From contig JAAOMT010000358.1 in NCBI GenBank assembly GCA_016748015.1, positions 1 to 22,493 on the forward strand: a stretch of DNA of 22,493 bases. The letters are read 5' to 3'. This DNA is from Geosiphon pyriformis (taxonomy: Eukaryota > Glomeromycota > Glomeromycetes > Archaeosporales > Geosiphonaceae). Each line of letters starts with the position of its first letter. Position 1 is the stretch's first letter. The position numbers and the translations under genes are program-made. This document shows, one piece after another, positions 1 to 22,493 of this stretch. The notes under the pieces are model-generated. The model had not been told where the DNA came from and ran no database searches. It saw only the letters and a list, made by a program, of their open reading frames with translations.

Positions 1-3000
1 GAAAGGCAAACCGCTCTTGGATGCACCAATGTTACCCTAGTTGAAGTATATTAAATAATGACTAATCAGAAGAAATATATTTTTGCCGAGTGAAATCAAT
101 TTATTTCTCTTGGCTTACCAGAGCCCAGAGGACGGATTTCAATTTTGAAACTATAGAAGAATCTCGTCTTTCCATTCCATGTTCTCTTACAAAACGGGCA
201 AACTCTCGAAAATGACCCCTTTCTCTTAATAGTTGACAACCTTCTTCAGTTTTTGCCAACTCGCCGTAAAAATGTGGTGGGGTCGTTCCATCAAATGTTT
301 GCCTTTGATAAATTAGTTGTTGATTCTTCATCTGAGAGTGTTTTTATTTAAGAGCACGAGAAGAATCTGGATCAAATAAAGTTACATTTTGATATCATCC
401 TCGTCATCCCTGCCACTGTCCCCGCCGAGTTTTAATGCAGTTGCCAGTAATACTTCAAGTTGGGTAACATAGTACTGATTACGGCTCTGAAGAGCAAATT
501 TTTGATTTTTTCACTAAATTGAAAATATTGGTTGTCAAGAGTTGAATTTTGCACTGTTTTTAACAGTACCTGAAACCAATCATCCATTTCCCTTTCTACG
601 TAGTCGAATTCGGAGAGATATCGAAAACCTATTGATGTTGACAGAAACCTAAGAAGCAAGGGATTGCCAACTTCACCCAAATGATCCAAGCTAGGTCTTA
701 GCTTCACAAGTAATTCAAGATTTTCCTTATGTTTACAAGTTTCTTCAAGGACGCGGACAGCCATTTCACAAACTTCCATAGCGGGATCATAGAGCTATTT
801 CAAGGTGAATTTCAAAACTTCGATTTGGGTTTTTTTACTTAAACAAAAAAGTAGAATGGAAACGAACCTGAGTGATTAATAATCTAATACCCCAATCGTT
901 AAATTTTTTGGTGGAGGTGCGCAAAATGGTGCCGAGATGCTTTGTTGCATAAAGTCTCATTTGCTTTTTGTATCAGAGAATTCGGTGAGCGAATATTTTC
1001 AATAAACTTCGGCTGTAAATAATTACCTTGTAGCCGGATGTCATTACTTTAGAGAGAATAATACGAGGATGTCCATCACTATTAATGTATTCATTTCGGG
1101 CGAATAAAAGTAATTGTTATCAGAAAATAAAAAGATTAAATTTGTAGATTCATATGCAGAGATAAATAAATCCATAACAAAAAATGAATTTGGTACATAC
1201 AGGCTATAGTCCAAACTAGTGATTATGACTTTGATTAGATCTTCACGACTTCGGAGTTCACTCAAGTGATAAAACGTATTGAAGATTTTAAACTTCTCCA
1301 ACAATCTATTTAATTTTTTATTGTCTCCCAATATTTAATGACGATATCATGATCAAAAAGAAATAATATAGAAATTTAATCTACTTGCCTGACACCATCT
1401 TTGAACTTACTTAGAACCCCTATCATAGTAAAGTATCCCGAGGTGAGAGTGTTTCCAATCCGTTCTTGAGAGAATAAAGGTTCTGATTCCACTGTACCCT
1501 TTATCTATGTGCCCAAAAGGCATAAAAACAATTTTCTTGGTTCTTTACTTCCGCGTGAGAATGATACTTGTATTGACATTCTCAAGTATAATAATGGGTT
1601 ACCGGATCAAGTTGAGTCAAACCTTCAGCGATTTGTCTCAAAAATTTGTTACTCTCCAAAAACTTAATCCCATCCGTGTTTTTCAGCAGTGTTGTTATCA
1701 GCGTGCACCCTAAACTTATAAACCGTTGAGTTTCCTAATAATCAAGAGTCTGGGTTAACAAGGTTAGAAGCTAGAAAATCATCTTAGAATAAATATTTAA
1801 ATTTGCTTTAAATACCGATTTTTTGACAATATCAGAGAAGCGACGACTTGAAGGTCGAAAAAAACCAATCAATCGCTTCAGATATTTACTTTTTATGGCT
1901 TCTTCTAACCTTCGAGGATTAAGTAAAGGACCTTGAAGTAACTCCATCAATGTTTCCAATTTCCATTTGGCATATTCCTTGGTATTTAAAACCTATATTT
2001 AATTATCCTCGTCAACTTAAATCATCTATGCCCAATAAGCTTAAGTAAGAATGCTTACACATTGCGGATCATAACAAAGTAATCGAACGAAACCTGGGTA
2101 TCCAAAAGCATGTTTCGAAAATGAACATCATCTATTTGAATTCCCATCGTAATCTTGACGTTCTCTACCTGCCGTGCACTTCTTCTTCGCCGGTCTTCAA
2201 GAGCTGTTGTTGCCCCCGTTTCTGCCAAATCATTCGACTGTAACCGAATTCGAGTTCTATTTAGATTATCAATGTGAGCTAGGGCCGCAGTTGCGTTATG
2301 ACGCACAATTTCATCTTCAAATTTTGTTGCAAGTTTGAAAAGTTTGGGAAGTGACTGGCGAGGAATATAGATTTTCGATATTGAATAAATATAAATGATG
2401 ATTTTGCTAGCCAAAAATTTGAATTCTCACTTGGATACGAATTGAACGGGATAAAGATAGCAACCGATTTGATAGCTGGAGAATTTCTCCAATAAAAAGA
2501 GTAGCTTTTCGTGCTATCTCCTGATTTTTATCTTCAATAATTTCAATTAAGGCCTGGTGATCAATTACAAAATGAATATTATAACGACACATTGAATGAA
2601 TTTCGTGAGATGGGAACTCAATCATAAAATAAAAATATTTTAACACCTCAAGGAGCCCCGAATCAATAAATATCACAAGCAGAACAACCAAATGATGATC
2701 CAAAAGATTGAGTCGATCATTACCAGAAGATGAAAGTGATGTTGGACCACTCATATTATCCTCCAGAGAAGACTGACCATATACTGTGTTAAATAATAAA
2801 AGACGAATTTATAGGTTCGGAAATTCATCAAAGAATTCATTTAATTAAAAATTAAAATTGTTACAGCTAATTCGCCTTCCAGATAAAATATTAGGATAGC
2901 ATATTGGTAGCTTGATCCGAAAGATATTGAAAAGCATATCTAGCATAACATCCTAAAAATAAACTTTGGATAAACTTTCAACTCAACTGAGTATATTCAT

Positions 3001-4705
3001 TCGAATGCTAGTATCTGAACAAACCTTTGTATCATCTGTAGTAATTCGTAAGGATTCTACGAGCGATTTTATTGCCTGTTTATTATCCATGCATAAATAT
3101 ATTATTCCCGTCCAAGATTTCATAAGAATGGAAATGGCTCTGGAACTAGCTTTCAGTTGTTGGTCTGATTTTGCTGTTTTGCTGCATATATCAGTAAAAC
3201 CAGATAAAACTATCTAAAAAAGAAGTAAAATTTGAATGGAAGTAAAATGTCAAGTTAAACGTTTACCAAAAAATAAGCAAACCTCCAAATCCACTCCAGG
3301 CCGTAGACATTCTCTCGATTCCGGTGTGTCAACCACAAAAAGTAATGCTAATACCAGATATTCGGAAAGTTCAAGCGGTCCGTCTATAAGAGACTGTAGT
3401 AATATGCGCATTCCTCCGCAATGGGTAATTAGTTTGGGGTCACGAATAACTACTCGAAGAATCAAATCATTGGTAAAATTAGTTAAATTAGCTGGTGTTT
3501 CTCAAGTGTGGCATATAGGCTCCTACCCATCTCAGCCAATGTCATCACACATATATTCCTGAGCTTTTCGTCAGCTTGCTCTGCTATAGATACAATTGAG
3601 CGCATTATTCCAATTGGAATATATTTTGTACCCTCAGGCACATCAATGAAAGATCGAATGAGTTTCAACACCTGAGCACGCTCATCATTGAAATATTTTG
3701 GATCCTTGGCCAAAGACCTATTGAAATACAATTATTTTGATTGTTGTTAGTAAGTATTTAAGCTAATCGGTACTTTGAATTTTGTGGAATCAAATCCCAA
3801 AATATGATTGACATGCAGATTCTTTTCGGTAAGATAACTGCCAAAATATATGCCAGTTCAGAAATAAAATCTTTACGTGGAGCGATAGCTGAACAGAACA
3901 TCGGGTGTAAATAAATCTGCATGTCGATCATCAATTAATTCCTAGGTTTGAGCAATTTCCTAAGCTGTAAACATGGAATTATCATAAAAAACTTTAAATT
4001 TCCATAATAACCTCATGATGAATATATCAAAGTGCAAATTTATGACTTTCTCTACTCTCCCAGCATCAACTATTAAATATCGCAAGGCTCGATACCCTGC
4101 CAGTCTTACTTCCTTAACCGAATCGGATACACAAAACCGCAAACTACATATTAACAGTGGTCAATTCAAAACGGAACACTTTAAAAAAAAAAAAAAACTT
4201 GGATAAAGAAAAAATCAAACCCCTGTAACAATGGCTCTGGGGGATAAGTATACTTGATACGTTCATGATTTTTTATTAATCTTATCAAACTTCCTAACTT
4301 CTCTACCCGAAATGATGGTTCTTCTGCTCTTTTCTGAATGCATGACAAAACTTCATCAATAATTTCAGCAGGAGTCCGACTTGTATCTGAATAATAACAT
4401 CTTATGCTTAAGGAATGCAGATTATTCCCAACTTTCAACTTATATATTTAAACTTTTAACCTTCGTCACGCTCAGATTCAGATTCTATTTGTAAAGTCAA
4501 ATTTCTCCTACTACGCATGGGAGATTGTTCTGAAGAAAATGTGGGTAGGTCCTTACGACGCCTATGAGGCCTTTTAGACTCCCCTATAAATTACAAAGAT
4601 AATAGAGAAAAAGGGAAAGTTAATCTTTTTAGAGCATTATTTTTCAGATTTCTTTCTTGTACCTAATTTCCTTGGGGACACGGGAGTCTCAATGCTCGTG
4701 TCCAT
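1..4705 (-). CDS. TORC2 subunit Rictor / Ste20(Sp) / Tsc11 (Avo3) homologue, N-terminal ~949 codons; 3' end outside the window
   Basis: Scaffold of TOR complex 2, which phosphorylates AGC kinases and controls actin and membrane homeostasis. I assembled 21 exons on the minus strand by splice sites, phase and family conservation: 4705-4663, 4583-4461, 4386-4221, 4143-4012, 3717-3527, 3452-3283, 3213-3025, 2952-2865, 2783-2647, 2553-2431, 2354-2094, 1992-1816, 1734-1603, 1504-1389, 1305-1201, 1078-1027, 963-868, 794-570, 486-386, 302-119, 36-1 (continues). Every junction keeps frame. Rictor hallmarks in order: EVRLAGYRALRYLI (residues 122-135, N domain), the LLQGPLLNPRRLEEAIK stretch (about 559-575), RLYATKHLGTILR (738-750), FYGELAKTEEGCQLL (about 887-901, RICTOR_V) and WALGNIGASKSG at the edge. 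The start is the ATG opening MDTSIETPVSPRK, followed by a basic, serine-rich leader. Fungal members are about 1,300-1,400 residues, so roughly a third is missing by truncation. Intron 14 is GC-AG. Family assignment is very firm; the first two exons are less certain. Confidence 0.95.
1306..1388 (-). other. GC-AG intron in the Rictor homologue (intron 14)
   Basis: On the minus strand exon 14 ends GGTGTCAG and the intron opens GCAAGTAG, so the donor is AG|GCAAGT, the classic GC variant with an otherwise perfect consensus. The acceptor is TTAAATAG. Joining gives DGVR-LLEKFKIF in frame, continuous with the Rictor family sequence. No GT donor nearby restores the frame. Seen in sequence; not tested by transcripts. 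Confidence 0.85.
3718..4011 (-). other. Long intron (294 bp) in the Rictor homologue holding a short inverted repeat
   Basis: Most introns here are under 110 bp. This one interrupts a stretch that is contiguous in the family (FDIFIM-RSLAKDPKYF). The donor is GAG|GTTATT and the acceptor TTTCAATAG. An 18-nt inverted repeat lies inside at 3804-3821 and 3914-3931 (17 of 18 positions pair), enclosing 92 bp. I found no further exon in it. Confidence 0.75.
3804..3931. repeat. 18-nt inverted repeat, 128 bp overall, inside a Rictor intron
   Basis: The left arm is ATGATTGACATGCAGATT (3804-3821). The right arm AATCTGCATGTCGATCAT (3914-3931) is its reverse complement with one mismatch. The pairing does not extend inward or outward, and I see no clear target-site duplication. 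It could be the termini of a small non-autonomous DNA element or a hairpin in the intron RNA. It sits in the longest intron of this gene. Confidence 0.55.
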
Positions 4706-5032
4706 CGCAGCGAAAAATAATTTAGATACTGCAAATTCTGAGGAAGGCGGAATAAAATTGACCGCATTCAATTCCAGGGAAAATGTTATCAACCAATATT
4801 ACGTATTTTCACTGTGCATCTGAGATCTGCAAGCCTTATCAATTACAGGGCTCAGGGCTAGAGTATTAAATTACACACAAACTAGATTGATAAGTTTTAT
4901 TTCAAAGCTTCGGGTGCTGTATGAAGGTTTAGTTCCCAGAACAGCTTAATGCACTTTTCAAATACTCGCTCAACTCTTCGATCTTAAGCTTGCTGTCAAC
5001 CCATCACGTCATTTTACATTTCGGTTTACTTC
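4706..5032. promoter_or_regulatory. Shared divergent upstream region of the Rictor and WDR7 homologues
   Basis: The two start codons point away from each other and are 327 bp apart, so both promoters must lie here or overlap the 5' ends. A CCAAT box is at 4793-4797. A CACGTCA site (ATF/CRE-like core ACGTCA at 5006-5011) lies about 22 bp before the WDR7 start and may fall in its 5' UTR. There is no clear TATA box. Function is inferred from position; the motifs are short enough to occur by chance. Confidence 0.5.
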
Positions 5033-8000
5033 ATGTCATCGGCCTCTTTAGTCGTTCCCCTGGCACTGTGGAATCAAATACCTAATACCCAAGTTACTTG
5101 TGCTGCATTTAAAGTTGGACATTTGGTGACAGGTTTGAAGACTGGTCAAATTTGGATTTATCGGTGTCGGGTTAAGGGGGAAAGAGGGGAAGTCGAGGTG
5201 AGAAGGTGCTTAAGCTGTTCTCTAGGCGGATTATTCTTAATTTATATACAAACTAGAGTATACTTCAGAAGTTAATCGGAATCATAAAATAAAATAAAAT
5301 TACAAGTTTTCTTTTTTTACATTTGTTTTCTTGTTTTTCTGAAATAAATGCAAAAATCGAAAAACATTGATTCAAGGAAATCAATGAATGTATTAGCTAC
5401 TAATTTGAATAAAGCCTCTCTTTGAATCCATCCATCTCAAGTGAATGTTTCAAATATGTAACCAATCTTTTCATCGATTTCCCTATCAAATAATTCCTAC
5501 GCCAAAAATCAGTTGGAACCCAAAGTTCTCTGTATTGGGCATAAATCTACTGTCGCTGCGTTAACTATAATCGAGGGCTATACCGATGGAAGTGCCGGCA
5601 ATGATTATGTGATCATCAGTGCCTCAGATGACGGGTTAGCTTGCACTTGGCATTTTTATTCAAAATTTTTAAACTCATTTATTTCACTATTTTTAATCGT
5701 CTTATTTAATTTTGGGTCCCTAAGGGAAGTTATGAAGTGGTGTTTATTAGATGGTCGATGTCTTGTATGCGTATCTCGGGCCTTTAATGGTTTTCCAAGA
5801 AGCCTAAAACCGTTGGCATCATCTGGCCAGGTTTTTACACAATGTCTTCTGGAATTTGAAATTTCAATCATATCTTGCCTAATCATATCAAAAAATTGCC
5901 CGGATTTGTATGGGGCTTGATCGGTTCGCGGACTTTTGTACAGACCGCAAAGTATGTTCTTTGCTGTGGTTTTTCGAATGAAATAACCATAATGGATTCC
6001 ACAACTTTGGAGGTAATTGATTGAATCAATATAGAAAGAATGATATGTATATTTGAAATTTTCAGTGTTTGCTCATGTTTACATTTAATCTAATTTAAAT
6101 CTCAAACATAAATTTAGGTTGTGCGCATCTGGGCTGGGCACAATGATTGGGTTGCTTGTACACCTTTTTATGATTCTGGTAAGTTCCATAAAAAGTTTGC
6201 TCTTGGCTTTGATCAAAATACTAAAATTTTATGTAATACAAGATGCTCGCCAAATCCTTCTTTTGACCGCAAATTTTAATGGAAAGTTGCGTATTTGGAC
6301 TTTTGATGAGCAAAAGAAAACTATTATCAAAGAGCATGACAACGTTGGAGAGTTGGATGCGCATGGAGATAAAATTTTGGAATTAACAAGTAATCCATAT
6401 GATATTGGTGTAATTCTTTCAATATCGAGAAAATGTGCCATAGTAAGCTATTTCCAATTGCGATGATTGATTGATTTTCAGAAAACAAAAGACTTTGGTT
6501 CGAAAATCTGATATTTTCTATGTAATTTTACTATTACGAATTCAATAATAAATACAATCTTTCTTTTATTCAGATATTTACAATCCGACGCGATAAGGTG
6601 CTAAATGTACAAGGAATCGTATCCCCTCACTCTAACGTTATTTGGACTGGTGGGATGTTCCTATCAAAAACTCGTGTTTTATTATGGACAAAGGTTAAAT
6701 TAAATAATGCAATCCAATGATTTGTTCGCAATTAAATTCAAAAAGAATTTTTCTTTTATTGGTGACATATATTTTTTGCAGACAGGCGAGGCCTATTTAT
6801 ATTTACTACCAATTAATAGCGAACGAAAGATCCAGCCAGAGCTGGGAAACCTTATGTTGAGAGCTGGCCCTACTAGTCCCGTTCGCCGATCTTCTTTACC
6901 ACTAATACCTACCACTGAGAATTTGTCCTCATCTTCAGCCAAGTAGGTTGTGTGCGCTATTTATTTGTATTTTATTAGATATTACAAAATTTTTTATCCA
7001 ATATAGGCCACTTTTATTAGAATCGGTTCATCGGAATGATAACGGTATTGAGTGGAATTTAGAGGCCCCGAATTTTTGATAAACCTACAAATTAATCATT
7101 AAATTTCTTTTCTCAGATTCCGAAATACACAGCGCGATAACTACTGTATTCAGTCCAACCAACCTTGAAGAAAATACCAATATATGGTATTTAATCAGCT
7201 TTCGAAACCGACCTAGTGGAACCGCTTACGCATGGAAGTCGTTACCTACAACTCACATTTTGCATGCAGGAGATAAAGGGAATAGCGAGGCAAAATGGTC
7301 ACAAGGCTAGTAATCGCAGGGTGCGCTTCTTTTTATAGTTCAAAACGTCACGTTATTTCTAATTTAATGTTTAATTATTCACTTAAATTTAAGAAAGGAA
7401 TCTTGCAAGTATATGGCCGTTAGAAACTTTACGAAATCATTTAAATCAGAACACGTCCCAAGTTACAATAACTACTAATGTTTATGACGACCAAATTGCG
7501 ATGGGATATGGTATGAGGTCCAAATATATTTTCATAATTTGAATGATTACCAGCAAATATAATTATGTGATATACGACGATATATTTGGTATAAATAGAA
7601 AACGGAGAAATACGACTTGTGCCTATTTATTTAGCACTCACTCAAAATGTACAAATTTTGAATTTTCCTGATATACAACTCCTGATTGGACATGTTGGAC
7701 GTGTTACTTGTATTTATTCTCCAAATATGAACACTTTTGGAAAAAAATATCTACTTTCTGGTGGAGCAGATTGTTCAGTTCGAATATGGAGCTTCGAGTG
7801 AGCTCCTTGATTAATCAAAAATTTTGGCTCATTTCCCATTTATCTCACTAATTTTCGCATATTTTAGGAATGGAAAGCGACTAGCAGTCTTTACCGTTCA
7901 TTCACAACCAGTAAAAAAATTCCTTGAGCCTCCCTCTGATGTCGGGGTAAGAATTCGAGGTTGCGTCATATCAGTGGCAAAGGACAATTCTTTAGCCTTT

Positions 8001-11000
8001 ATATCTTTAGAAGAGATGAGCTGGTGAGTTAAATTTCATTTGGAATTTAATTCCTCGAACTATTTTTTGAATCCTGTGTGTATTACCAAAACACCAAAAA
8101 ATTTTCCATAGCCTTTATATTTTTGGTGGTTATCCGTACCCCATTATGGGAATTCAGTGGCGACCATCCGAAGATTCTTTATTACTCTCATATGGTGATG
8201 AAACAGTTCACGTTTGGCAGGTTTGTGGATAACATATAATGAAAGTTTTTAAGTTGTTTGGATAAAAAGGGAAGATGAGTTATAAAGAAAGTTATTAAAT
8301 CAAAAGATGCAATCTGGAAGTCTTGATCGCATTTTGAAAGGTTCAACCGCGCGGATGATGATTGGTGATAAACAATGGAAAATTAGGTAAATTTTAACCT
8401 CATTCATTTCAGAGTGTAGCCAAGGGATTTTTATATAATTTCTTTAATAAAGGCATGATCTCTTCACTTAAATAGTCGAATAGCATCTGCCGACAATATC
8501 AAAGGCAACCAAAGTAAAGGCAAGACGCTCTCGTCTTTCGCCATTGATTCGACGGAAAATTGTATTTATTTTTTTTCTCAATTATGACTAATAACCAAAA
8601 ATGAAAGAATTACAACATTATTCTAATTTTAAATCACAACATGTTTTAAGCTACCTCACCGCTACACATATTCATGATAAATATAAAGCAACTTATAAAC
8701 GATATTTATCATTATCATGTATCTGCATTGGGCTCATTTTCGTTCAATAAGACTAATGGTGTTATGGTCGAAACCGATGAAAGAGGAAGAGAATTCGATG
8801 AGAAAGACGGGACACAATCAAAAATATTTTCATGGACGACAACTAGTCAAATTCCCAACGCTCCTCAATCTTCAAATTCAACTTTGTATTCGCAACTGGA
8901 ACCTGAAAGTGGTGCCCTAGGGGCAAGTGTTGTACAAGGGTTAGTATCGGCCTTGATGTCATGGGAGATTGATGGCTCATTGGATAAAATATGTGTCGAG
9001 CGTTTGGGACTGAAGAAGCCAATAAATAATATTACCTTTGGAATCAGAGGGTAACAATAAGTTCGACCATCTTTAACTTGATTTTTCTCTCGCACAATAA
9101 GCATTTAATTTAACATTATTTTTTGCTTTTGTTCAGAGCAAACGGGAATTTATCCATTGCAGCCCCTTCATGTCAACCAGGAAAATCTATTTGGCAGATA
9201 TCTCCGGCAATGACGGCTATTCATCTTTTATCGATCGTTGGCTTGACGCGATCTTTCTTGTCTATGAAAGGTTAGTGCTAGATGTAGCTCTTATATATTG
9301 CATTCCCTCCCCCCAAGAAAATACTTGTAAAATTCCGCTTTTTGAACATTCAAAGTTTTCAAAAATTATAGTAATATTGATTATCAGGTTTTTTTGTCAT
9401 TTTAAAATTTTTTTCTTTAAAGGTTTAGAGAAGTATACGTGCGACATTATCACACATTATGGAAACACTTTACCCCGTCTCGTTGGTTCAGGATTCTGTC
9501 ATTCCTCTCTTTATTTTCTGGCTAAATATTTCCAAGATCCATCAGGTGTGATTCAAAATTAAGAGCCATCCATATTCTACTAAGTTTCTTAATGTCCAGG
9601 CTATTTTACATATTAGTTGATATACAACAAGCGGCGCGGGCACTTTTTTCGTATTCCTTGAATAATATGCCTCCTGAAGATCAGCAAACTGTCATTGACT
9701 TTTGGAAACAATTTTGTGAGCATATTGATCTCCCCTTTGTGATTTTAACCTAAAGATTCATGATATCGTGAATCCCTCCAACTGATTAACTCAAACTCTA
9801 AGTGCCAGCAGTATCTTCTCCCGATTCACATACGAATCAATTTATGGCAAGGTCTACAATATTGCTCGCTATGATCGCAGCAGATCATCCAAACGTTTTA
9901 CCGAGCAAGTGAGTTTTTATAAAGAAACTTGCTTAAATTTTAAAAAAGATAAAATTTTCATTATATGTTAATAAAGGGTCGCGAAAAATGTGGCTTTGTC
10001 ACTTACTTTGCTACTGAACGATGAGTCCAAGATATCCCATCGATTAGCTGCGCTTGAATTATGCGGAAGAGGATTTGATATTTGGGAGCCTCATATCCTT
10101 TTTCTCATACTAGCAATGGATTTTATTTTATATTCTACCTTTGATCCCTTAACCTTTTGGGATACATTTCAATGGGGTAGCAGTCCTCCGAAGTTTATTT
10201 TCACTGGCAATGGATGGAGATACGAATGCAAATGCAGTTAAAGCAATGGCTCGTAAAGCAATTTTTCAAATAGCTTCAAACAATACTACGCTGTTTATAT
10301 CCACACTTACCTATGATACAATGAATTCTGCGAAACCTAGCGATAAGAACAATTATCTCAAGTTGATTTCATTATTTATTCGTAAGAAACCATTGATATT
10401 ATTCTCTAACCTTCCAGTCTTGGTCGAGGCTGTGGTCAGATCATTAGATCCAAATATACCCAATCTTCGAGAAACTGTTTTGCAAACAACTACTAGTATT
10501 TTGCATGATTTAGTCCGAACTTTCCCATCAATTACCTTCCATGGGCGTTCGCAGAAATTAGCAGTGGGAACATTGGAAGGTGCATCGATAATTTATGATC
10601 TACGAACTGCTACACGATGGCACGTTTTGGAGGTGGATCCTGTTTATTTTTTTCATCTCTTATTTTCTATGATTACATAATTACAAAATTATTTTTGAAA
10701 TAGGGACATACAAAACCTGTCACGGCAATATCATTTTCAATGGATGGAAAAATCATAGTCTCTTGTTCCCTCGATGAAAGAACAGTGCGTGTATGGAATC
10801 CCAGTCCGGGATTATTAGGGATGCTCACCGGATCTTTAGCGGCTGGGACTGGAGCAACGCGTGAGGCCAAACCTTTTGCAACTACTCTATCGAGTTCAAT
10901 AAAGTCAGTCAGAACTTTTGGATTTAATCTTGGTGATGAAGGTAGATCAGAAAATAAGATGTTTGCATCGTAAATAAAGCTTATTTAATTAATACTCATT

Positions 11001-11119
11001 TAAATTCACTAGTACATCTCTCAATTCCAATGATTTTGGATTCAGTACACTTTGAATGGGTAGGCGAGAGGACCGTGAAGCTCTATGTTCAGGAGCTAAC
11101 AATGTCTTTCAATGTTTAA
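5033..11119 (+). CDS. WDR7 / rabconnectin-3 beta homologue (WD40 protein of V-ATPase assembly)
   Basis: WDR7 partners the DMXL1/2 (rabconnectin-3 alpha, Rav1-like) proteins in assembling and activating V-ATPase on acidic organelles. Exons: 5033-5197, 5513-5634, 5725-5830, 5944-6012, 6118-6178, 6243-6442, 6574-6693, 6782-6942, 7007-7044, 7117-7305(?), 7394(?)-7510, 7599-7797, 7868-8023, 8112-8220, 8307-8386, 8476-8561, 8651-9050, 9137-9270, 9423-9545, 9617-9715, 9803-9908, 9977-10092, 10166-10632, 10704-10941, 11013-11119. Phases agree throughout, giving about 1,255 residues (human WDR7 has 1,490). An N-terminal WD40 array (LALWNQIP, GHVGRVTCIYSP, LLSGGADCSVRIW, QWRPSEDSLLLSYGDE) is followed by a helical middle (LAKYFQDPSG, GRGFDIWEPH) and a C-terminal WD40 part (FHGRSQKLAVGTLEGASIIYD, GHTKPVTAISFSMDGK). 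It ends LTMSFNV-stop. One intron is U12-type, and the 7305/7394 junction is uncertain. Family assignment is very firm. Confidence 0.95.
5198..5512 (+). other. Long first intron (315 bp) of the WDR7 homologue
   Basis: The donor is GAG|GTGAGA and the acceptor CAAAAATCAG. Joining gives VE-LEPKVLCIGH, matching the family (a linker before the first GH dipeptide). It contains a perfect 8-bp hairpin, CATTGATT at 5365-5372 and AATCAATG at 5379-5386, with a 6-nt loop, plus T-rich tracts. No further exon was recognised. Its length and first position would allow a regulatory role, which is inference only. Confidence 0.75.
7306..7393 (+). other. Intron with unresolved borders in the WDR7 homologue (GC-AG or weak GT-AG)
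   Basis: An in-frame TAG at 7308-7310 requires an intron between THILHAGDK and ASIWPLETL. Option A: donor AAG|GCTAGT at 7306 (GC type) and acceptor TTTAAG at 7393. Option B: donor ATG|GTCACA at 7298 and acceptor GAAAG at 7397. Both keep frame and differ by four residues. Option A has the better donor apart from GC, and a clear GC-AG intron exists in the neighbouring gene. The listed exon borders use option A. Confidence 0.5.
10093..10165 (+). other. U12-type AT-AC intron (73 bp) in the WDR7 homologue
   Basis: The donor reads ATATCCTTTTT, matching the U12 AT-AC consensus ATATCCTTT at all nine positions. TCCCTTAAC at 10145-10153 matches the U12 branch-site consensus TTCCTTAAC at eight of nine, and lies about 13 nt before the terminal AC (GGGATAC|ATTTC), inside the usual narrow spacing. 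The intron length is not a multiple of three; read-through shifts frame and meets a stop at 10239-10241. Only AT-AC removal joins IWEPH to FNGVAVLRSLFSLA, the conserved WDR7 order. Confidence 0.92.
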
Positions 11120-11329
11120 AAACGAGTGGAAAAATTGAAAACTGTATTTTTATTTTGATAAATTATTACTTGATATTCAAAATTTATACCGAGCTAAAAA
11201 TTTTGATGGCATTAGATGGGGAATATGTAATTAAAAGTTATATACAATGTAACTACTTATTTGGATTTTTATTATCTAAAGTTATACCTGTGGAATAAAG
11301 AAGTTAGTAAAATTCAAAATCTTCCAATT
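11120..11329 (+). other. 3' flank of the WDR7 homologue with AATAAA signal
   Basis: This A+T-rich stretch directly follows the TAA stop (11117-11119). A canonical AATAAA is at 11294-11299, about 175 nt after the stop, so a 3' UTR of about 190-200 nt is plausible. No gene is recognised here. Confidence 0.5.
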
Positions 11330-11549
11330 CTGGCGTCACGACTGAAAGGTGTTCGTTTGTAAGGTTGTATCTTGTGTGTTTGGCATCGCGGCGAAAAGGA
11401 GGAAGTGGTTGGTGGTCAGACGAGAGGATGATGGAGGCCCCGGAAAGAGCAATGTTCACCTCCGCGTTTGCATCTCTTCCTCTTGTGGTGTGGTTGATCC
11501 TCCTTACCAGGCACTAGGGATGAACGTATTCGACGGCCCCCAGCTCTGA
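11330..11549. other. GC-rich block (~53% GC) of unknown origin at the edge of the A+T desert
   Basis: Hand counts over 11341-11548 give 110 G/C of 208, against about 35-40% in the neighbouring gene and about 10% just to the right. A 66-codon ATG frame (11349-11549) is open, but I recognise no domain in it. Other frames on both strands have only short open stretches. It may be the remnant of a transposable element or a foreign insertion. It shows no clear similarity to the second GC island near 14395-14627. Confidence 0.5.
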
Positions 11550-14394
11550 GATAAAAGTATTACACAAATATTATTATTCAAATTAATTAATAATTTATAA
11601 TTTTAATAATAAAATTTAAATTGTCAAAAGTTGTTATAATTAAATTAGTTAAAAAATAATACAAAAAATAACTATTTTCAATAAATTGTTTGGTTTTTTA
11701 AAAAAATTTTGGTTTTAAATTTAAATTGTATTTTTGTATTGTCTTTATAAATTTTATATAAAAATACTGTGTCAATTGATAAACAAATTTAAATATTTCA
11801 AAATAATTTTAATAAAGTTAATACGAAAATTTGCTAAATTTTAAAATGTTAAATTTAATAAAATTGAGTTAACAACTTATGCAATTAAAATTCCAAAAAA
11901 TTTAGTTTTATTTTAAAAATAAATATTAAAAGATATTACAAAATATGAGAATAACTTTAATATATGATATTAGGTTAACAAATTTAGTATTAAAATTTTT
12001 AAAACTAAACAGAAAATTTGAATATACTAAAAAAAATTGGCTTCATAATTAAAAGTTAAATAATCTAAATTTTAATATTTATAAATATGTTTATATTTAT
12101 TAAACATAATTGTTTTTTAAAATACCAATTTTAAACATAATAGCATTAAACTTATAAGTATTTTTAACAACAATTAAATTCAAAAAATCAAAAAACAAAA
12201 CAAAGTTTAAACCAATATATTATTAGTTTTAAAAATAGTACAGCCAAAAAAATTAAACAAATTAAGTTTAAAAATATTATAAAAAATAATTATTTTCTTT
12301 TAATTCAAAAAATATTCTAATATTATCTTTTTTTATTAGAGCTAATTAATAAGCAAAAGCAGTTTTAAAAATTGAAATAAATAATAGTATATTATTACAA
12401 ATTAGCAAATATTAAACTTAATACCAAAAACTTTATTTAAATTTTTAATATTATTAGTAAAAATATCTAAAGAAATATTATAAAGTATTATAATAACAAA
12501 AACTAAAACAAAAACTACAAAAAATTTAACAAATTAAAAATAATAAGAAAAAAATTAACAAGTTTAATTTTAACAATAGTATTTAAAAAACTTGTAATAT
12601 AAACTTAATATAAAAAATTTTATTATTATGTATAATAATTAATTCTATATTATTAAAAACTAAAACACAATTTTAATATAAGTTATTTTGATTTTAATAA
12701 TAAAATTACATATTAAAGTAAAAACTAATTATTTAATAATTAATAATATTTTTTAAATATTATTAAAAATAAAAAAAATGCTTTAAAAAATATTGAAAAA
12801 AATACTGTTTTTTGATATCTTGAGAAATTTAACTTTACTTTTATTAAAAAAAAGTTGTTTTTTTGGGTTTTGGTTTTTTTACTATTTAAAAACAAAAAAA
12901 TAAATAATAGTTTTGTTATTAGCTTGTAATTAAAAATCTTAAAGCTTTTGGCAGTAATAATAGCAAAATTATAACTGTTTCTAATGTGTTGTTTTATATT
13001 TGTATTATTTACTAAAAGCATTTTAACAAAAAATTGTTTGATTTTTATTGTTAAAAAAACTTTTTAATAGTTGTATTATTAAAAGCTATAAAAAATAAAT
13101 ATTGTTTTTTATTTTTTGGTTTAATTATAATTATAAAAAAAAGTTAATTAGCATTAATAAATTGTTTAGATTATAAAATTTCAATAATGAAAATAATTAG
13201 CATAAATATTATTTTAATAAAGTTTTCTTTTTAAATTTATTTATTTAAAATTTATGTAATAATTATGTCTAAATTCTTACATTAATTATTTAATTCAATT
13301 ATAAATAATTTTTCGATTTTTTTATAAAGTATTATTTAATGTTTTTAATATATTTAACATATATAGTTTTTTTTAACATTAATTTTTTACTGGTTAATAA
13401 TAATTTAAAAATATTTCAAATGCAATTGTAAATTAATTTTAGCTAATATTTTTAGTAATAAAAAAAGAAATTATTTTTCACAAATTTTTTGGTTTAATTC
13501 TTAATTAAGTGGTAAAATATTTTTGTTGAAAATTTGGTAAATCTTTTTAAAAAGTGAATTTGCTTTGGTTTTTTAAATAAAAAATAATATGTAAATAATA
13601 TAGCATTTTAAAAATGATTGGTTATTATAAAAGATAATATATTTTTAACAAAATTGTATTTTTTACTTGTTTAATTGTTTAATTTTTTGAAATTTGGATA
13701 AATAATAATAGTTGACAATTTTGTAAATATTTTTGTTTTATTTTTCCATTAATAAAATGCAATTTTTAATGTAGAAAAAGCGTATTTGAATTTTATTATT
13801 TGTTTTTTATTAATAAATATTGTTGTTGGTTTATAAGTTAAACAAAATATTAATTTTTAATTTTTAATTGTTTTTTTTTAATTAAATTGTTCTTTGTAAT
13901 GTGCTTTAAAGTAATAATAATATAGTTTATATAATTTTTTTAAGTATAAAAAAGTTATAATAATTAATAATTGTAATAATTTATTATAATTAGACATTTT
14001 GAAACTTTTTAACTAATTCAGATTTAAATTATTTAAAGTTTTTATTCAATTTATATGTTTTTACTATTAAGCTTTTTTTAAAATAGCTGATATTCTATTT
14101 AAATTTATATATTGTAATTAAATTAATGTTGGCTTTAAAAAACTGATTAATTTTTACAAGAGCTTAGTGTTGAAGATTATTCATAATAAAAACATTAATT
14201 AAAGTAGCAATTTTATTATTTTTAAATAAAATTTTTAATATTATTTATTATAATAATGATAGTTTGAGCTGCTTTTTTAATATTGTCTAAATTGTAATAT
14301 TAATTAAATTATTACTTAAAATAAATCTAATTCATTTTATTTCTATTATAAATTAATATGCATTACTGTAATTGCTTTTTGTTTGAACATAGTC
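11550..14394. other. A+T-rich gene desert, part 1
   Basis: GC in the 60-base lines I counted is about 10-18%. Homopolymer runs and TAA-rich words fill all frames. No splice-bounded exons, RNA genes or family matches were seen. A 93-codon minus-strand frame (12740-13021) is rich in Phe, Lys and Ile and looks like chance. Strand composition changes at about 12,780: A and C exceed T and G before it, T and G exceed A and C after it. Confidence 0.7.
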
Positions 14395-14627
14395 ATATTC
14401 GTAGTTGAGGCTTTTGAGGTGAGTTTTGGGACGCGCAGGCATTGTTTGTTTTACTCAGGTCTTGGCGGAGACGTCACTGTTAGGATAGACTCGTAGTGTT
14501 GCCTTGACCGGCCCGAGTGGCTGGTCACGCGTAGAAAGTGCGTGAGTCGCACCTAGTTTGGAACACCTAGTTGTTGTATTATACTAGGCAGCGATTGGGC
14601 CTCACTCGTTAGATGAAAAAAAAAAAA
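14395..14627. other. Isolated 51% GC island with hairpins and a terminal A12 tract (SINE-like or structured RNA candidate)
   Basis: 108 of the 210 bases in 14401-14610 are G/C, with about 10% GC on both sides. Predicted pairings: GACCGGCC (14506-14513) with GGCTGGTC (14519-14526), 8 bp with one G-U and a 5-nt loop; CACGC (14526-14530) with GCGTG (14540-14544); CCTAG (14566-14570) with CTAGG (14584-14588). A possible closing helix pairs TGAGGC near 14406 with GCCTCA near 14600. CACCTAG occurs twice, 14 bp apart. The right end is A12 (14616-14627), as in retroposed short elements. CCCGAGTGG resembles a tRNA Ser/Leu A box, but I find no good B box, so the family is unknown. Confidence 0.5.
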
Positions 14628-14744
14628 TCATATTGCTAGTAAAATGATAATTTGTTTTTTTTCAATTCAAAATATTAAAAAAATGTGAATTTTGTACTAC
14701 ATTTGCTAATAGGGTTGTGGTTTTAATTACATGTTTAATTGTTT

Positions 14745-14780
14745 AAAAATAAAAATAAAAATAAAATAAAATAAAAATAT
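14745..14780. repeat. (AAAAT)n/(AAAAAT)n microsatellite
   Basis: A run of AAAAAT and AAAAT units, imperfect in period, ends in ATATAC. Simple-sequence repeat. Confidence 0.75.
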
Positions 14781-14940
14781 ACAGTTTCGAAAATTTCTTT
14801 AAGCTTAAAATATTTGCAAATTAATTAATTAACTTCAAAGTTATTAATTTGTACTATAATAAATACATTTCAAAATAATTTTAGTTTTGTTGATTATAAT
14901 TTGAACATATATTTATTTAGTACTAAAACTTTTTAAATAC

Positions 14941-14962
14941 AATATATATATATATATATATA
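14941..14962. repeat. (TA)n microsatellite
   Basis: About ten uninterrupted TA dinucleotides preceded by AA. Simple-sequence repeat in the A+T desert. Confidence 0.85.
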
Positions 14963-15115
14963 AGTAATATTTTAAGTTTTAACATTATTATTTCTGCAAA
15001 ATACTCAAGATTTTAGCAAATTCTTTTAAATTATTTTAATTATATTTGAATTGTACAAATTAAGTTATTACTGGAAAAATATAAATGATTTAAATAACTA
15101 ATAATTAAATAATTA

Positions 15116-15565
15116 ATGCTCAATATTAAAAAAAATATTAAAATAAAAACACTTTTTTTTGTCGATTTTCATACTATTAAGAGCCATGAAACCAAAAAAT
15201 ATTTGTTACTTATTATTTTTCTTTACTTAATTATTTTTACAATTATATTCTTAATAGCTGATAAGCATTTTTATCAAAGATATGTTAAAAAAAATATTAT
15301 AGTGTTTGTATTTAAAAAGTTTAATACAAATATTAAAAGCTTTAACAATAATATTAGCTTTTTTCTAAAAAAGCTTTTGGTGTTTAGTAATAAATATAAC
15401 ATTGTAAGTAAGAATAAAGCAATTAAAATTAATACTAAAAATATAAATAAAAGTTGCAATAATAAAATTAGCATTATCATAAAAAACAATATTAACTTAT
15501 TAACATTTCAAAAAACAAATATTCAATATAACTTTACCCAAAAATGTATTAATAATATTATTTAA
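15116..15565 (+). CDS. Doubtful open frame, 149 codons, Asn/Lys/Ile-rich with one hydrophobic segment
   Basis: ATG to TAA is open for 149 codons in DNA where about one codon in nine should be a stop, so it is longer than expected by chance. The product would have one strongly hydrophobic stretch (about residues 28-48, LLLIIFLYLIIFTIIFLIA) and a long Asn/Lys/Ile-rich tail. Against coding: G+C is nearly flat over codon positions by hand count (about 16%, 14% and 18% at positions 1, 2 and 3), whereas a real A+T-rich gene should have its lowest GC at position 3. I recognise no domain. It is reported because of its length; most likely a chance frame or decayed element. Confidence 0.12.
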   Translation: MLNIKKNIKIKTLFFVDFHTIKSHETKKYLLLIIFLYLIIFTIIFLIADKHFYQRYVKKNIIVFVFKKFNTNIKSFNNNISFFLKKLLVFSNKYNIVSKNKAIKINTKNINKSCNNKISIIIKNNINLLTFQKTNIQYNFTQKCINNII

Positions 15566-16154
15566 AAGTCAGATTTTGAAAATAAAAATAAAGATATATG
15601 TTTAAACCAATTTTATTATCTTTGCAATTTGTTTTTTTGTTTAATTTAGCTTAGCCAAAGCCAAACAATTGGCTAAAAAAGATAGTATAATTTTAAATAC
15701 CAATTTTAAATTTGTAAATTTTTAATTAATATTTTTAAAAAGATTGTACAATCAACATTTTTTAAATTTGATAGAATTTTGTTAATTAAATTATAATTAA
15801 TTTAACTTTAATAAAAAACTGTAATCAAATTTAGTTGCCTTTAAGTAGTCTATTTTAATTATAAAGAATGCTATTTATGTTGTAAGAGCTAATATAAACA
15901 AAACATTATAAATAAAAAATGTATTATGCTTTATTATATATATTGCTAATAAGCACTAATGCTTATAATTGTAAAATCTTTTAGGCTTTGTAAGTAAAAA
16001 AAAACTTGTGTTATTAACAGAAATCCTTTTATATATATAAAATATTAATATTATTACCAAAGAAATTTTCAATGTATTTTTATAAATTTTTTATTTTTAT
16101 TCTTTGTTGCTATTATTTTTGTCTTGAATTTCAATTTTAATAAAAGCTGTTGAA

Positions 16155-16593
16155 TTTTCAATAAATTTTAGTAGTTACTTTGCAGTAAAGTTAACTTTTC
16201 TATATAAAATTTTGACTGTAACTTTTTTAATAATGTGTAGTTACTTAGAAATAAAAATCAATTCTTTTACAAAAAAATTAATATAAAATATGTTTTTCCA
16301 ATATGAATTTCCAATTAATTTTACAAGTTGTTATTTTTTTAATTATTAAATCTTAGTTTAAATTGGAGTTTTAATATTTAATATTTTAAAATTAATCTTT
16401 GGAAGATTAATTTTAATTGTCTATTAGTTTCAGATTTTTGGGTTATGAAAATTTAAAAACCATAATAATATCTTTACTATTAATTATTTCATTAGAATAA
16501 TTTGGAAATTAAAAAATTAGTTAATTAATTTAAGATTGAAAAAGATATTTTAAGATTGAGATAAAAGAAGAGAAAAGCTTTTTTTTTATACAA
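16155..16593 (+). repeat. Left arm of a decayed inverted-repeat pair
   Basis: 16155-16234 is similar to the reverse complement of 19281-19357: TTTTCAATAA, then ACTTTGC-GT-AA, TTAACTTTT, GACTGTAA and TTAATAAT in the same order, roughly 75% identical by eye. An 18-nt identical word (AGC, nine T, ATACAA) is at 16576-16593 and inverted at 19065-19082. GTAGTTACTT recurs at 16171 and 16237, a 66-bp tandem step. Confidence 0.6.
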
Positions 16594-16744
16594 AATTTAT
16601 GTAATATTAATAAAATTCTAAAATTATTAATTTCGTAGCAATTTTTCTGAATTTCAATGAACCATTGATTATTCCAATAAACTTCTAATCAATTCAACCT
16701 CAACTAATTAAACTTTATTTGAACTACTTGAAATCTATCTTTAA

Positions 16745-16777
16745 TGCATAAAATTTCAGTTTTAACTGCATAAAATT
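16745..16777. repeat. Short direct repeat TGCATAAAATT
   Basis: TGCATAAAATT occurs at 16745-16755 and 16767-16777, a 22-bp step, in the slightly less A+T-rich segment just right of the left inverted-repeat arm. Confidence 0.5.
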
Positions 16778-18136
16778 CATTAATTTTAGTCGAAATCGCT
16801 TGAATTCATTTGTATTAAAAGTCCACAGTTTTGAATATGATCTACATAATTTCTGTAATTTCGTTTAATATTATTTAACTAATAATAATTACTAATTTAA
16901 AAATAAATAATTAAACAACTAAATTAAAAATTAAAGGCCATAAAAAATATTTCAATTTCTTTATAATTTATTATTTAATATTACTAATTAATGTTTATTT
17001 TATTTATTTATCCAATTATTTATTACTCTGTTATTTAATTATTTAATTTTCTATTTTTTTTACTAATAACAATATGTTACTATTAGCTTTAAGTTAAAAA
17101 AACTTTAAATTAAGCACTTGTCTTAAAAATAAAAATATGACTTTAACATAAGCCAGACTTAATCTGTTTAAGTATACAAAATATGATTATTTTAATTATA
17201 TTGCTTTAAAATACAACTTTGCTAAAAAAAGCCATTTTAGTTCAAGAATTTTTGTTTAATAATAACAAATTATGTTTTGCATAAATTTATGCCAAAAAAG
17301 TTTTTTTTGTTAATTATTTTGTTGTTTTTAGTAAAAAAATTTAAGTGCAAATAGTGGGTAAAATTTTTTAAAAAAAATATTATTAATTTTAATTTGCTAT
17401 TTTTTATAATAATTTTTAATTCAGTTTTAATTTTTAATGTATATATAAAAATAATATTAAATTTTTTTATTAACAAAACACTTATTAATATTGAATATAA
17501 TTTAAAGTTAATTAGTTTAAAACAGAAACTTAATGGTTTTTCAAATTTTGTTTTAAATTTAACAATACAATAGTGTTATTTAAGTAAAAAAAAAACAGCA
17601 AAAAAACATTAATAATTAATTAAATAAATATTAACATAAAAAATACATAATAGTTAATAATGATAAACAATAAAATAACAATAATTAATAATAATAAATT
17701 ATTTAATAATTTAAAAAATATGTATAAATACAAATAATATTAGCCAAAAAAAGTATTTAATAAAAAAGTATTTTTTATTAAGCACATAAATTCAAAAAAT
17801 ATTATTATAATAATTTAATATATTTAATTTTTTTTATTTATTAATAAATTCCAAAATATAAACCAATTAATATTTTAAATAAATAGCTTTTAATTATAAT
17901 TATTAATAAAATATTAATTTTTATTTATGTTTTATCTTAAATTAATTTTTGAAAAAAAATAATATTATATACAATATTATTAATAATTTAATAAAATTAA
18001 ACATATTAATAATTTATAATTATTAAAAACAATAAATTATTAAATTTCTGTTTTTTATACAAAAAGCTCAATTGTAAAACTTTAAATTATTAAACCTTTT
18101 GGATAAATCAAGTTATAAAAAACATTAAATTATTAA

Positions 18137-18157
18137 AATAATAATAATAATAATAAT
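18137..18157. repeat. (AAT)n microsatellite
   Basis: Seven uninterrupted AAT units. Simple-sequence repeat. Confidence 0.85.
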
Positions 18158-18983
18158 TCTTGGATATTAAATTAAACTTATTAATATTTATTTTTTTATA
18201 AGTAATTTAGTTTAAAAATTCTACAAAACAAAAAAATATTGTTAAATAACATAAAAAACAGTAAATTTTATTTTAATTATTATAAAAATTATGTTAAAAA
18301 ATAATTTGTGTTCTTAAATAAAGAACAGTTTTTAAAATATAAAAGTTTTTATTTTAAACAAATATAAAAAACTTTTTGGAATTTAAAGTAATAATAATAT
18401 TTAATAATATTTAAAATTTTTTTAAAGTAATATATTTTGTTAATAAAAAACTTTTGAATATTATCATAAATAAAAGTATTTATAAAAGTAAAGTTTTTTT
18501 AACACTAATTATTAGGCTGTTTTTATTAATATAAATTTGAAAATTAAAAAAAATTATTAAAAATTTAAAATTAATTAATTGGTTTTAATAATAAAACTCA
18601 ATAATTTATTTGAATATAGCCAATTTTTTAAGCAATTAAAATAATATATAAAGATTGTTAAAAAATATTTTAATTAAAATACCAAAATTTTTTTAAATAA
18701 AGTTAATTTTGTAATTTTAATGTTTTAATAATATTACCAATAAAGATTTGAATTATTAATTAGCATAAAATTACTCTTATAATTTCTATTATTAATTAGT
18801 ATATTATCATTCAAATTTTTACTTATTATTTTATCAAATTATCAAATATTACTATCTAATTAATAAATTAATTTGTACAATACACAAATATAACTAATTA
18901 CAATAATTAGATTATGTAATATCTTGAACTATCTAGTATTCAAAAATTTACTAAAATATTTAATAGTTTATAGAAATAACTTG

Positions 18984-19017
18984 TAGTTCGTCAAAATATA
19001 TCTTTAGTTTGTCAAAA
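18984..19017. repeat. Short direct repeat TAGTTYGTCAAAA
   Basis: TAGTTCGTCAAAA (18984-18996) and TAGTTTGTCAAAA (19005-19017) differ at one base, with a 21-bp step. They sit next to the right inverted-repeat arm and may be part of the same element. Confidence 0.5.
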
Positions 19018-19064
19018 AATTAGCAAAAAAAAAGTACAAGATAATAAAATAGTATTATAACAAG

Positions 19065-19440
19065 TTGTATAAAAAAAAAGCTTTTTTTTTTGAGAATATA
19101 TCTTATTTAGAATCTTAATTCAGATTAATTAATTAGCTACTACAAATTAATTCAATAAATTTATTTTGAAAACCAATTTTTTTTCAGAAATATTACTGTT
19201 TAAAATTCACAATTTTGATTAATTTCAAGTCTAAACCAAAAACATTTATTTTATTTTATTGTATTTTATTTTTTTCTTATATTATTAAGTAGTTTACAGT
19301 CGAGATTTTTGTAAAAAAGTTAATTTTCACAGCAAAGTAATTATATATTATTGAAAAGCTTACAAACAAAAATTTTTGTAAAAAAGTTAATTTTTACTAT
19401 AAAATAACTACATAAATAATTGGGATAAAATTGGTCATTT
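19065..19440 (-). repeat. Right arm of a decayed inverted-repeat pair, with a 67-bp tandem duplication
   Basis: This is the reverse-complement partner of 16155-16593. Internally a 22-nt identical block (TTTTTGTAAAAAAGTTA plus ATTTT) occurs at 19306 and again at 19373, a 67-bp step that mirrors the 66-bp step in the left arm. Spacing between the tandem part and the T9 word differs (about 340 bp left, 200 bp right), so the arms have diverged by indels. Confidence 0.6.
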
Positions 19441-22400: not shown

Positions 22401-22493
22401 AATATTGTTTAAAAAGACAAAAACTTTTATTAATACATAATGACAAATTTAAAAAAAAGCTGTAATATACAATAAAATAATTAGAAAACAAAA

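What the first reader, a model, noticed from the sequence alone, without database searches (positions are those of the whole stretch)
10093..10165. U12-type AT-AC intron inside a fungal-looking WDR7 gene
The donor matches the U12 AT-AC consensus 9/9, the branch site 8/9, and branch-to-acceptor spacing is about 13 nt. Coding continuity demands this exact AT-AC excision. Minor-spliceosome introns are lost from Dikarya and rare in fungi, so this places the organism among lineages that keep U11, U12, U4atac and U6atac, and shows retention in a conserved trafficking gene.
Basis: partly seen in the sequence, partly recalled or inferred. Interest (0 to 1): 0.75.

Follow-up and report, generated by a model that had tools for sequence, protein, structure and literature searches.

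The report
U12-type AT-AC intron in WDR7
A short stretch in a V-ATPase-assembly gene of a probable fungus is almost certainly a rare minor-class intron, and the same genome carries the machinery to remove it; such introns are already known from some fungi, so this is a solid but not surprising example.

Summary
10093-10165 is a 73-nt AT-AC intron, phase 1: donor ATATCCTTT 9/9, branch TCCCTTAAC 8/9, branch A to acceptor 13 nt. No GT starts between 10026 and 10176, so no GT-AG intron fits this junction. Excision joins GRGFDIWEPH|FNGVAVL, collinear with human WDR7 (recalled letters). The genome has U11, U12 and U6atac above Rfam cut-offs, U4atac below its cut-off (E 1.7e-4), and protein families PDCD7 (59K) and SNRNP25. 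Of 20 other AT-AC motif places fetched, 12 look like real introns; five align gap-free to solved homologues across the junction (ATG9, XPG/Rad2, SMC3, prefoldin 5, EFL1). Minor introns are published for Rhizophagus, Basidiobolus, Phycomyces and Rhizopus, so this is a new member of a known kind. Less expected: the matched motif census supports 13 AT-AC introns, the window's included, but only 1 GT-AG U12 intron, against about 26% AT-AC in human. There are no transcript data, the fungal identity is only weakly supported, and no orthologous intron position could be checked.

The parts
10093..10165 (+). U12-type AT-AC intron, 73 nt, phase 1
   Evidence: motifs, absence of GT, frame continuity
10093..10101 (+). 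U12 5' splice site ATATCCTTT, 9/9
   Evidence: strongest U11 and U6atac duplex among the seven introns of the partial gene model
10145..10153 (+). branch-site motif TCCCTTAAC, 8/9; branch A inferred at 10152
   Evidence: duplex energy with U12 not better than shuffled sequence
10164..10165 (+). AC acceptor
9977..10092 (+). upstream exon, encodes VAKNVALSLTLLLNDESKISHRLAALELCGRGFDIWEP plus first base of the next codon
10166..10632 (+). downstream exon, encodes (H)FNGVAVLRSLFSLAMD... into the first C-terminal WD40 repeat
8920..10941 (+). C-terminal half of the WDR7-like gene, hand-made model: 8920-9050, 9137-9270, 9423-9545, 9617-9715, 9803-9908, 9977-10092, 10166-10632, 10704-10941; the other six introns are GT-AG, 68-152 nt
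   Evidence: WD40
5033..11119 (+). inferred extent of the WDR7-like gene, ATG to TAA; ends and the middle exons not verified
   Evidence: inference

Best explanation
10093-10165 is a U12-type (minor-class) AT-AC spliceosomal intron in a WDR7 (rabconnectin-3 beta)-like gene. In the standard pathway (established for other organisms, inferred here) U11 and later U6atac pair with AUAUCCUU, U12 pairs with the branch motif and bulges out the A at 10152, and the minor spliceosome removes 73 nt, so that CAT (His) is completed across a phase-1 junction and the reading frame runs on into the C-terminal WD40 repeats. Shown here: the sequence motifs, frame continuity, genes for the four minor snRNAs (U4atac below the curated score) and two minor-spliceosome protein families, and other AT-AC introns of the same kind in the genome. 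Inferred: actual splicing, use of the exact junction, branch nucleotide.
For: Motifs and spacing. No GT start from 10026 to 10176; 0 of 62 frame-keeping pairs are GT-AG, proposed pair ranks first. Pattern chance 0 of 3000 simulations. Gap-free alignment across the junction to recalled human WDR7. U11 80.9 bits, U12 55.1, U6atac 70.9, all over cut-off; U4atac 43.7 against cut-off 53, E 1.7e-4; U11 begins UAAAAGGG, U6atac has AAGGAGAGA, U12 has AUGAGUAAGGA. PF16021 35.6 bits and PF18036 44.3 bits, over cut-off. 26 rows against 8 for the backward pattern; 11 of 20 fetched places restore a frame by length thresholds, a twelfth (L025) by homology; gap-free alignments to solved homologues across AT-AC junctions in ATG9, XPG/Rad2, SMC3, prefoldin 5 and EFL1.
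Against: No transcript evidence. U4atac is below its Rfam cut-off. Duplex energies of U6atac and U12 with the intron were no better than shuffled intron pieces (1061 and 1459 of 2000 shuffles as good; U11 69 of 2000), and the U12 duplex does not set this intron apart from the gene's six GT-AG introns. The branch motif has one mismatch. 8 of 20 fetched motif places show no support, so the motif alone has many false positives. The length thresholds were chosen after seeing the data, and the window's own intron fails the retained-frame threshold (49 open codons on retention). WDR7 identity uses recalled letters.
Confidence: 0.94

Rival explanations
1. An AT-AC intron removed by the major (U2) spliceosome.
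For: U2-type AT-AC introns exist (recalled; Bartschat and Samuelsson's Table 2 has a column 'Other AT-AC introns', PMC2846911, passages).
Against: The donor is 9/9 for U12 and pairs far better with U11 than the gene's other donors (-14.2 against -1.3 to -7.7); a U12 branch motif sits 13 nt from the acceptor; the minor machinery is present.
Confidence: 0.03
2. A GT-AG or GC-AG intron with another junction, or a short intron-free insert.
For: Eight GC-AG pairs keep the frame without a stop; the upstream frame is open through the 73 nt.
Against: No GT start from 10026 to 10176; GC-AG choices delete parts of the conserved GRGFDIWEPHFNGVAVL block (inspection); retention breaks the frame 49 codons on.
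Confidence: 0.02
3. Assembly frameshift or pseudogene, so that the 'intron' is an artefact.
For: No second assembly or reads were available.
Against: A sequencing error would not create a full U12 donor, branch and acceptor at once; flanking exons are intact and conserved.
Confidence: 0.01

Closest known systems
Minor (U12-type) introns of Rhizophagus irregularis (Larue and Roy 2023, PMC10639083; passages seen)
   Same: Non-Dikarya fungal genome with all four minor snRNAs, human-like motif consensus, phases away from 0
   Different: There 205 minor introns; here no complete annotation, and the motif census is dominated by AT-AC. The share of AT-AC in Rhizophagus was not in the passages seen.
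Minor introns of Phycomyces blakesleeanus and Rhizopus oryzae (Bartschat and Samuelsson 2010, PMC2846911; passages seen)
   Same: AT-AC and GT-AG U12 introns in early-diverging fungi
   Different: Phycomyces 9 AT-AC and 8 GT-AG, Rhizopus 1 and 2 (first of the two rules used); here 13 and 1 by a different, motif-only census
WDR7 / rabconnectin-3 beta, V-ATPase assembly (PMC12527914, PMC8264551 and PMC10586682; passages seen)
   Same: Conserved GRGF.xWEP block followed by C-terminal WD40 repeat; WDR7 orthologues are reported in Mucor, Ustilago and Cryptococcus and absent from ascomycetous yeasts
   Different: Identity here rests on recalled human letters; function untested

Membership tests
U12-type (minor) intron | 5' splice site near [AG]TATCCTTT | tested here: met
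   9/9
U12-type (minor) intron | branch motif near TTCCTTRAC, 10-15 nt from the acceptor | tested here: met
   8/9, branch A 13 nt from the last base
U12-type (minor) intron | AT-AC or GT-AG ends that restore the reading frame | tested here: met
U12-type (minor) intron | host genome has U11, U12, U4atac, U6atac | tested here: met
   three over the curated score; U4atac below it at E 1.7e-4
U12-type (minor) intron | host genome has minor-spliceosome proteins | tested here: met
   PDCD7/59K and SNRNP25 families only; 65K, 31K, 35K and 48K not searched
U12-type (minor) intron | spliced in vivo at this junction by the minor spliceosome | not testable with these tools
   no transcripts
U12-type (minor) intron | U12 snRNA pairs with the branch better than chance | tested here: inconclusive
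   1459 of 2000 shuffles pair as well in a model without the bulged A
WDR7 (rabconnectin-3 beta) | sequence similarity to WDR7 along the C-terminal part | tested here: inconclusive
   E 4e-22, 58/233 identical, against recalled human letters; no database record of WDR7 matched
WDR7 (rabconnectin-3 beta) | N-terminal and C-terminal WD40 propellers flanking a helical middle part | tested here: inconclusive
   C-terminal WD40 over cut-off; N-terminal hit to WD40_2 just below cut-off (20.3 against 22.5 bits); middle part not modelled in full
Fungi | phylogenetic placement by rRNA or proteins | tested here: inconclusive
   two SSU searches returned machine errors and an 18S word gave 0 matches. By score XPG/Rad2 and ATG9 lie nearer the entries that I recall as yeast ones; TFIIH p34 lies nearer GTF2H3 than TFB4; prefoldin 5 and EFL1 top hits are entries that I recall as human

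The most novel reading that the evidence does not exclude
The minor-intron set of this genome has been reduced mainly to the AT-AC subtype: GT-AG U12 introns were largely lost or converted to U2-type, while AT-AC introns, which the major spliceosome recognises poorly, remain as a relic set. This is what the class-conversion hypothesis (PMC7367187, passages) would predict for a lineage in mid-decline.
Probability: 0.3. Interest if true: 0.5.

Novelty: new member of a known kind. Interest (0 to 1): 0.3.

Why it matters
It adds a well-supported minor intron, with its machinery, from a genome outside the ones usually cited, and it shows WDR7, which one 2025 paper suggests was added recently in animals because yeast lacks it (PMC12527914, passages), in a probable early-diverging fungus, in line with WDR7 orthologues reported in some fungi (PMC10586682, passages). 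The AT-AC skew, if it holds under a full annotation, would let the class-conversion hypothesis be tested in fungi.

Tried and rejected
A WDR7 record was sought in the PDB copy and Pfam: only general WD40 hits and weak chance-level hits. Papers: 'WDR7' with 'minor intron' gave 3 papers and with 'U12' 35 papers of which 20 were listed (listings only, none opened for this), none with a title on a WDR7 minor intron; 'XPG' with 'AT-AC intron' gave 0; WDR7, SMC3, XPG and ATG9 do not occur in the main text of PMC10639083. A second U12-like donor on the minus strand at 2927 lies inside the open RICTOR-like reading frame as I read it and was rejected (by eye). A stricter GT-AG U12 pattern gave 0 places against 1 control; the pattern matched to the AT-AC one gave 2 places against 8 control rows, of which L028 shows no frame continuity and L027 does. 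Duplex energies for U6atac and U12 proved uninformative. Of 20 AT-AC places fetched, 8 gave no support (L009, L012, L014, L015, L017, L018, L023, L026); three further copies of the L026 repeat (C7, C323, C357) were not fetched.

Full report
What is there. The stretch 10093-10165 begins ATATCCTTT and ends AC, with TCCCTTAAC at 10145-10153 and 13 nt from the inferred branch A to the end. The upstream frame reads ...RLAALELCGRGFDIWEP and the frame after removal reads HFNGVAVLRSLFSLAMD... on to 10632 without a stop. Without removal the frame runs 49 codons and stops. No GT starts between 10026 and 10176, so a GT-AG intron cannot make this junction. Among 62 donor/acceptor pairs that keep an open frame, 0 are GT-AG, 8 are GC-AG, 36 AT-AG and 18 AT-AC; the proposed pair is best on donor and branch match. 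The pattern was found in 0 of 3000 simulated sequences of the same length and first-order composition.

The gene. A hand-made model of the C-terminal half has eight exons; its other six introns are GT-AG and 68-152 nt long. Pfam finds a WD40 repeat over cut-off in it, and in an N-terminal piece a WD40_2 hit just below cut-off. This is a lead for the name; no database record called WDR7 was matched. WDR7 is part of the complex that assembles V-ATPase in animals (PMC12527914, passages), and orthologues are reported in Mucor circinelloides, Ustilago maydis and Cryptococcus neoformans but not in ascomycetous yeasts (PMC10586682, passages).

The machinery. One match each in the genome (124,688,122 bases, 406 contigs): U12 55.1 bits against cut-off 53, U11 80.9 against 39, U6atac 70.9 against 33, and U4atac 43.7 against 53, E 1.7e-4. 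U4atac is therefore the weakest link, though it ends in the Sm-type site CAAUUUUUGGAAAA. The controls of those searches, 14 named genomes, rang in 0. Minor-spliceosome proteins PDCD7/59K (35.6 bits, cut-off 27) and SNRNP25 (44.3 bits, cut-off 22.8) are also present. Duplex energies: U11 with this donor -14.2 against -1.3 to -7.7 for the gene's other six donors, and U6atac -9.9 against -0.2 to -4.9, but shuffled intron pieces pair as well with U6atac in 1061 of 2000 and with U12 in 1459 of 2000 trials (U11 69 of 2000), and the U12 value (-6.4) lies within the range of the other introns. So the duplex test supports only the U11 part.

Other introns of the same kind. The AT-AC pattern gives 26 rows, 24 distinct places, against 8 rows for the pattern read backwards. 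Four places are copies of one repeat (C7, C212, C323, C357; judged from the printed letters). I fetched flanks of 20 of the 23 places outside the window. Eleven of 20 restore a frame with at least 34 codons open upstream and 41 downstream and under 30 on retention; these limits were set after seeing the data, and the window's own intron passes the first two but not the third. Arbitrary AT..AC pairs in the same loci pass in 69 of 1082 cases; by binomial 11 or more of 20 has probability 7e-9, which the after-the-fact limits make too optimistic. A twelfth place (L025, phase 0) falls short of the limits but joins a prefoldin subunit 5 sequence. Alignments to solved homologues run without a gap across the AT-AC junction in ATG9, XPG/Rad2, SMC3 (best entry; one gap in the next one), prefoldin 5 and EFL1. 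A Ca-channel-like place (L019) has an Ion_trans domain upstream of the junction and, beyond it, only weak EF-hand hits; a CRAL/TRIO place (L021) has its Pfam match (3-100) across the junction. The other supported places have no Pfam match over cut-off or, for L013, were not scanned. Phases of the 13 supported introns, the window's included: 8 phase 1, 4 phase 2, 1 phase 0, in line with the bias away from phase 0 described for minor introns (PMC10639083, passages). The phase probabilities printed assumed 0 of 12 and no longer apply.

AT-AC skew. The same pattern with GT and AG ends gives 3 rows, 2 places, against 8 backward-control rows, so there is no excess over chance; a stricter form gives 0 against 1. 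One of the two (L027) is real by homology: it joins TFIIH subunit 3 (p34) without a gap over the junction. That makes 13 AT-AC to 1 GT-AG. Computed for 12 of 13, before L025 was added, the chance is 9e-7 if the AT-AC share were 26% as in human (PMC10639083, passages), 2e-4 if the GT-AG motif were half as detectable, and 3e-3 at the Phycomyces share of 9 of 17 (PMC2846911, passages; binomials). The census is exact-motif only, so a shifted GT-AG consensus in this genome could produce the same result. Moyer et al. argue that AT-AC introns escape conversion to the U2 type because the major spliceosome recognises them poorly (PMC7367187, passages), which would explain such a skew. Blastocystis, with 77% AT-AC, is a precedent (PMC10639083).

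What is known. Minor introns are reported in Rhizophagus irregularis (205), Basidiobolus meristosporus (249), Phycomyces and Rhizopus, and not in Ascomycota and Basidiomycota. The intron is therefore a new member of a known kind. Whether the host is a fungus is not settled: SSU searches failed, and homologue scores point both ways (towards entries that I recall as yeast proteins; 66, 67, 68 towards those that I recall or that are named as animal ones; 45 nearly equal).

Verdict. Real U12-type intron, confidence 0.94; ordinary for a lineage that keeps the minor spliceosome. The AT-AC skew is the one lead that could be more than ordinary.

Noticed in passing
window 101-4447, minus strand: RICTOR (TORC2 subunit)-like gene: RICTOR_N and RasGEF_N_2 matches over cut-off in 4 of 5 open frames scanned.
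   Followed up: partly
window 11561-22493: Sharp drop in G+C: 13.6% here against 35.4% in 1-11560 (profile). No tRNA and no Rfam family over cut-off in the window.
   Followed up: no
window 11330-11560 and 14385-14640: Two G+C-rich islands (52% and 46%) at and inside the AT-rich part; the second contains a run of 12 A near its end and matches L006:242-369 at 71% over 135 nt, so it may be a SINE-like dispersed repeat.
   Followed up: partly
L027 (G000 C100:154020-154090): The one supported GT-AG U12-type intron, in a TFIIH subunit 3 (p34) gene, phase 1.
   Followed up: yes
L025 (G000 C394:418171-418241): AT-AC U12-type intron in a prefoldin subunit 5 gene, phase 0, the only phase-0 case among 13 supported AT-AC introns.
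   Followed up: yes
L026 (C212:120988-121043) and C7, C323, C357: A repeat family whose copies carry the U12 AT-AC motif by chance; the one copy fetched shows no frame continuity.
   Followed up: partly
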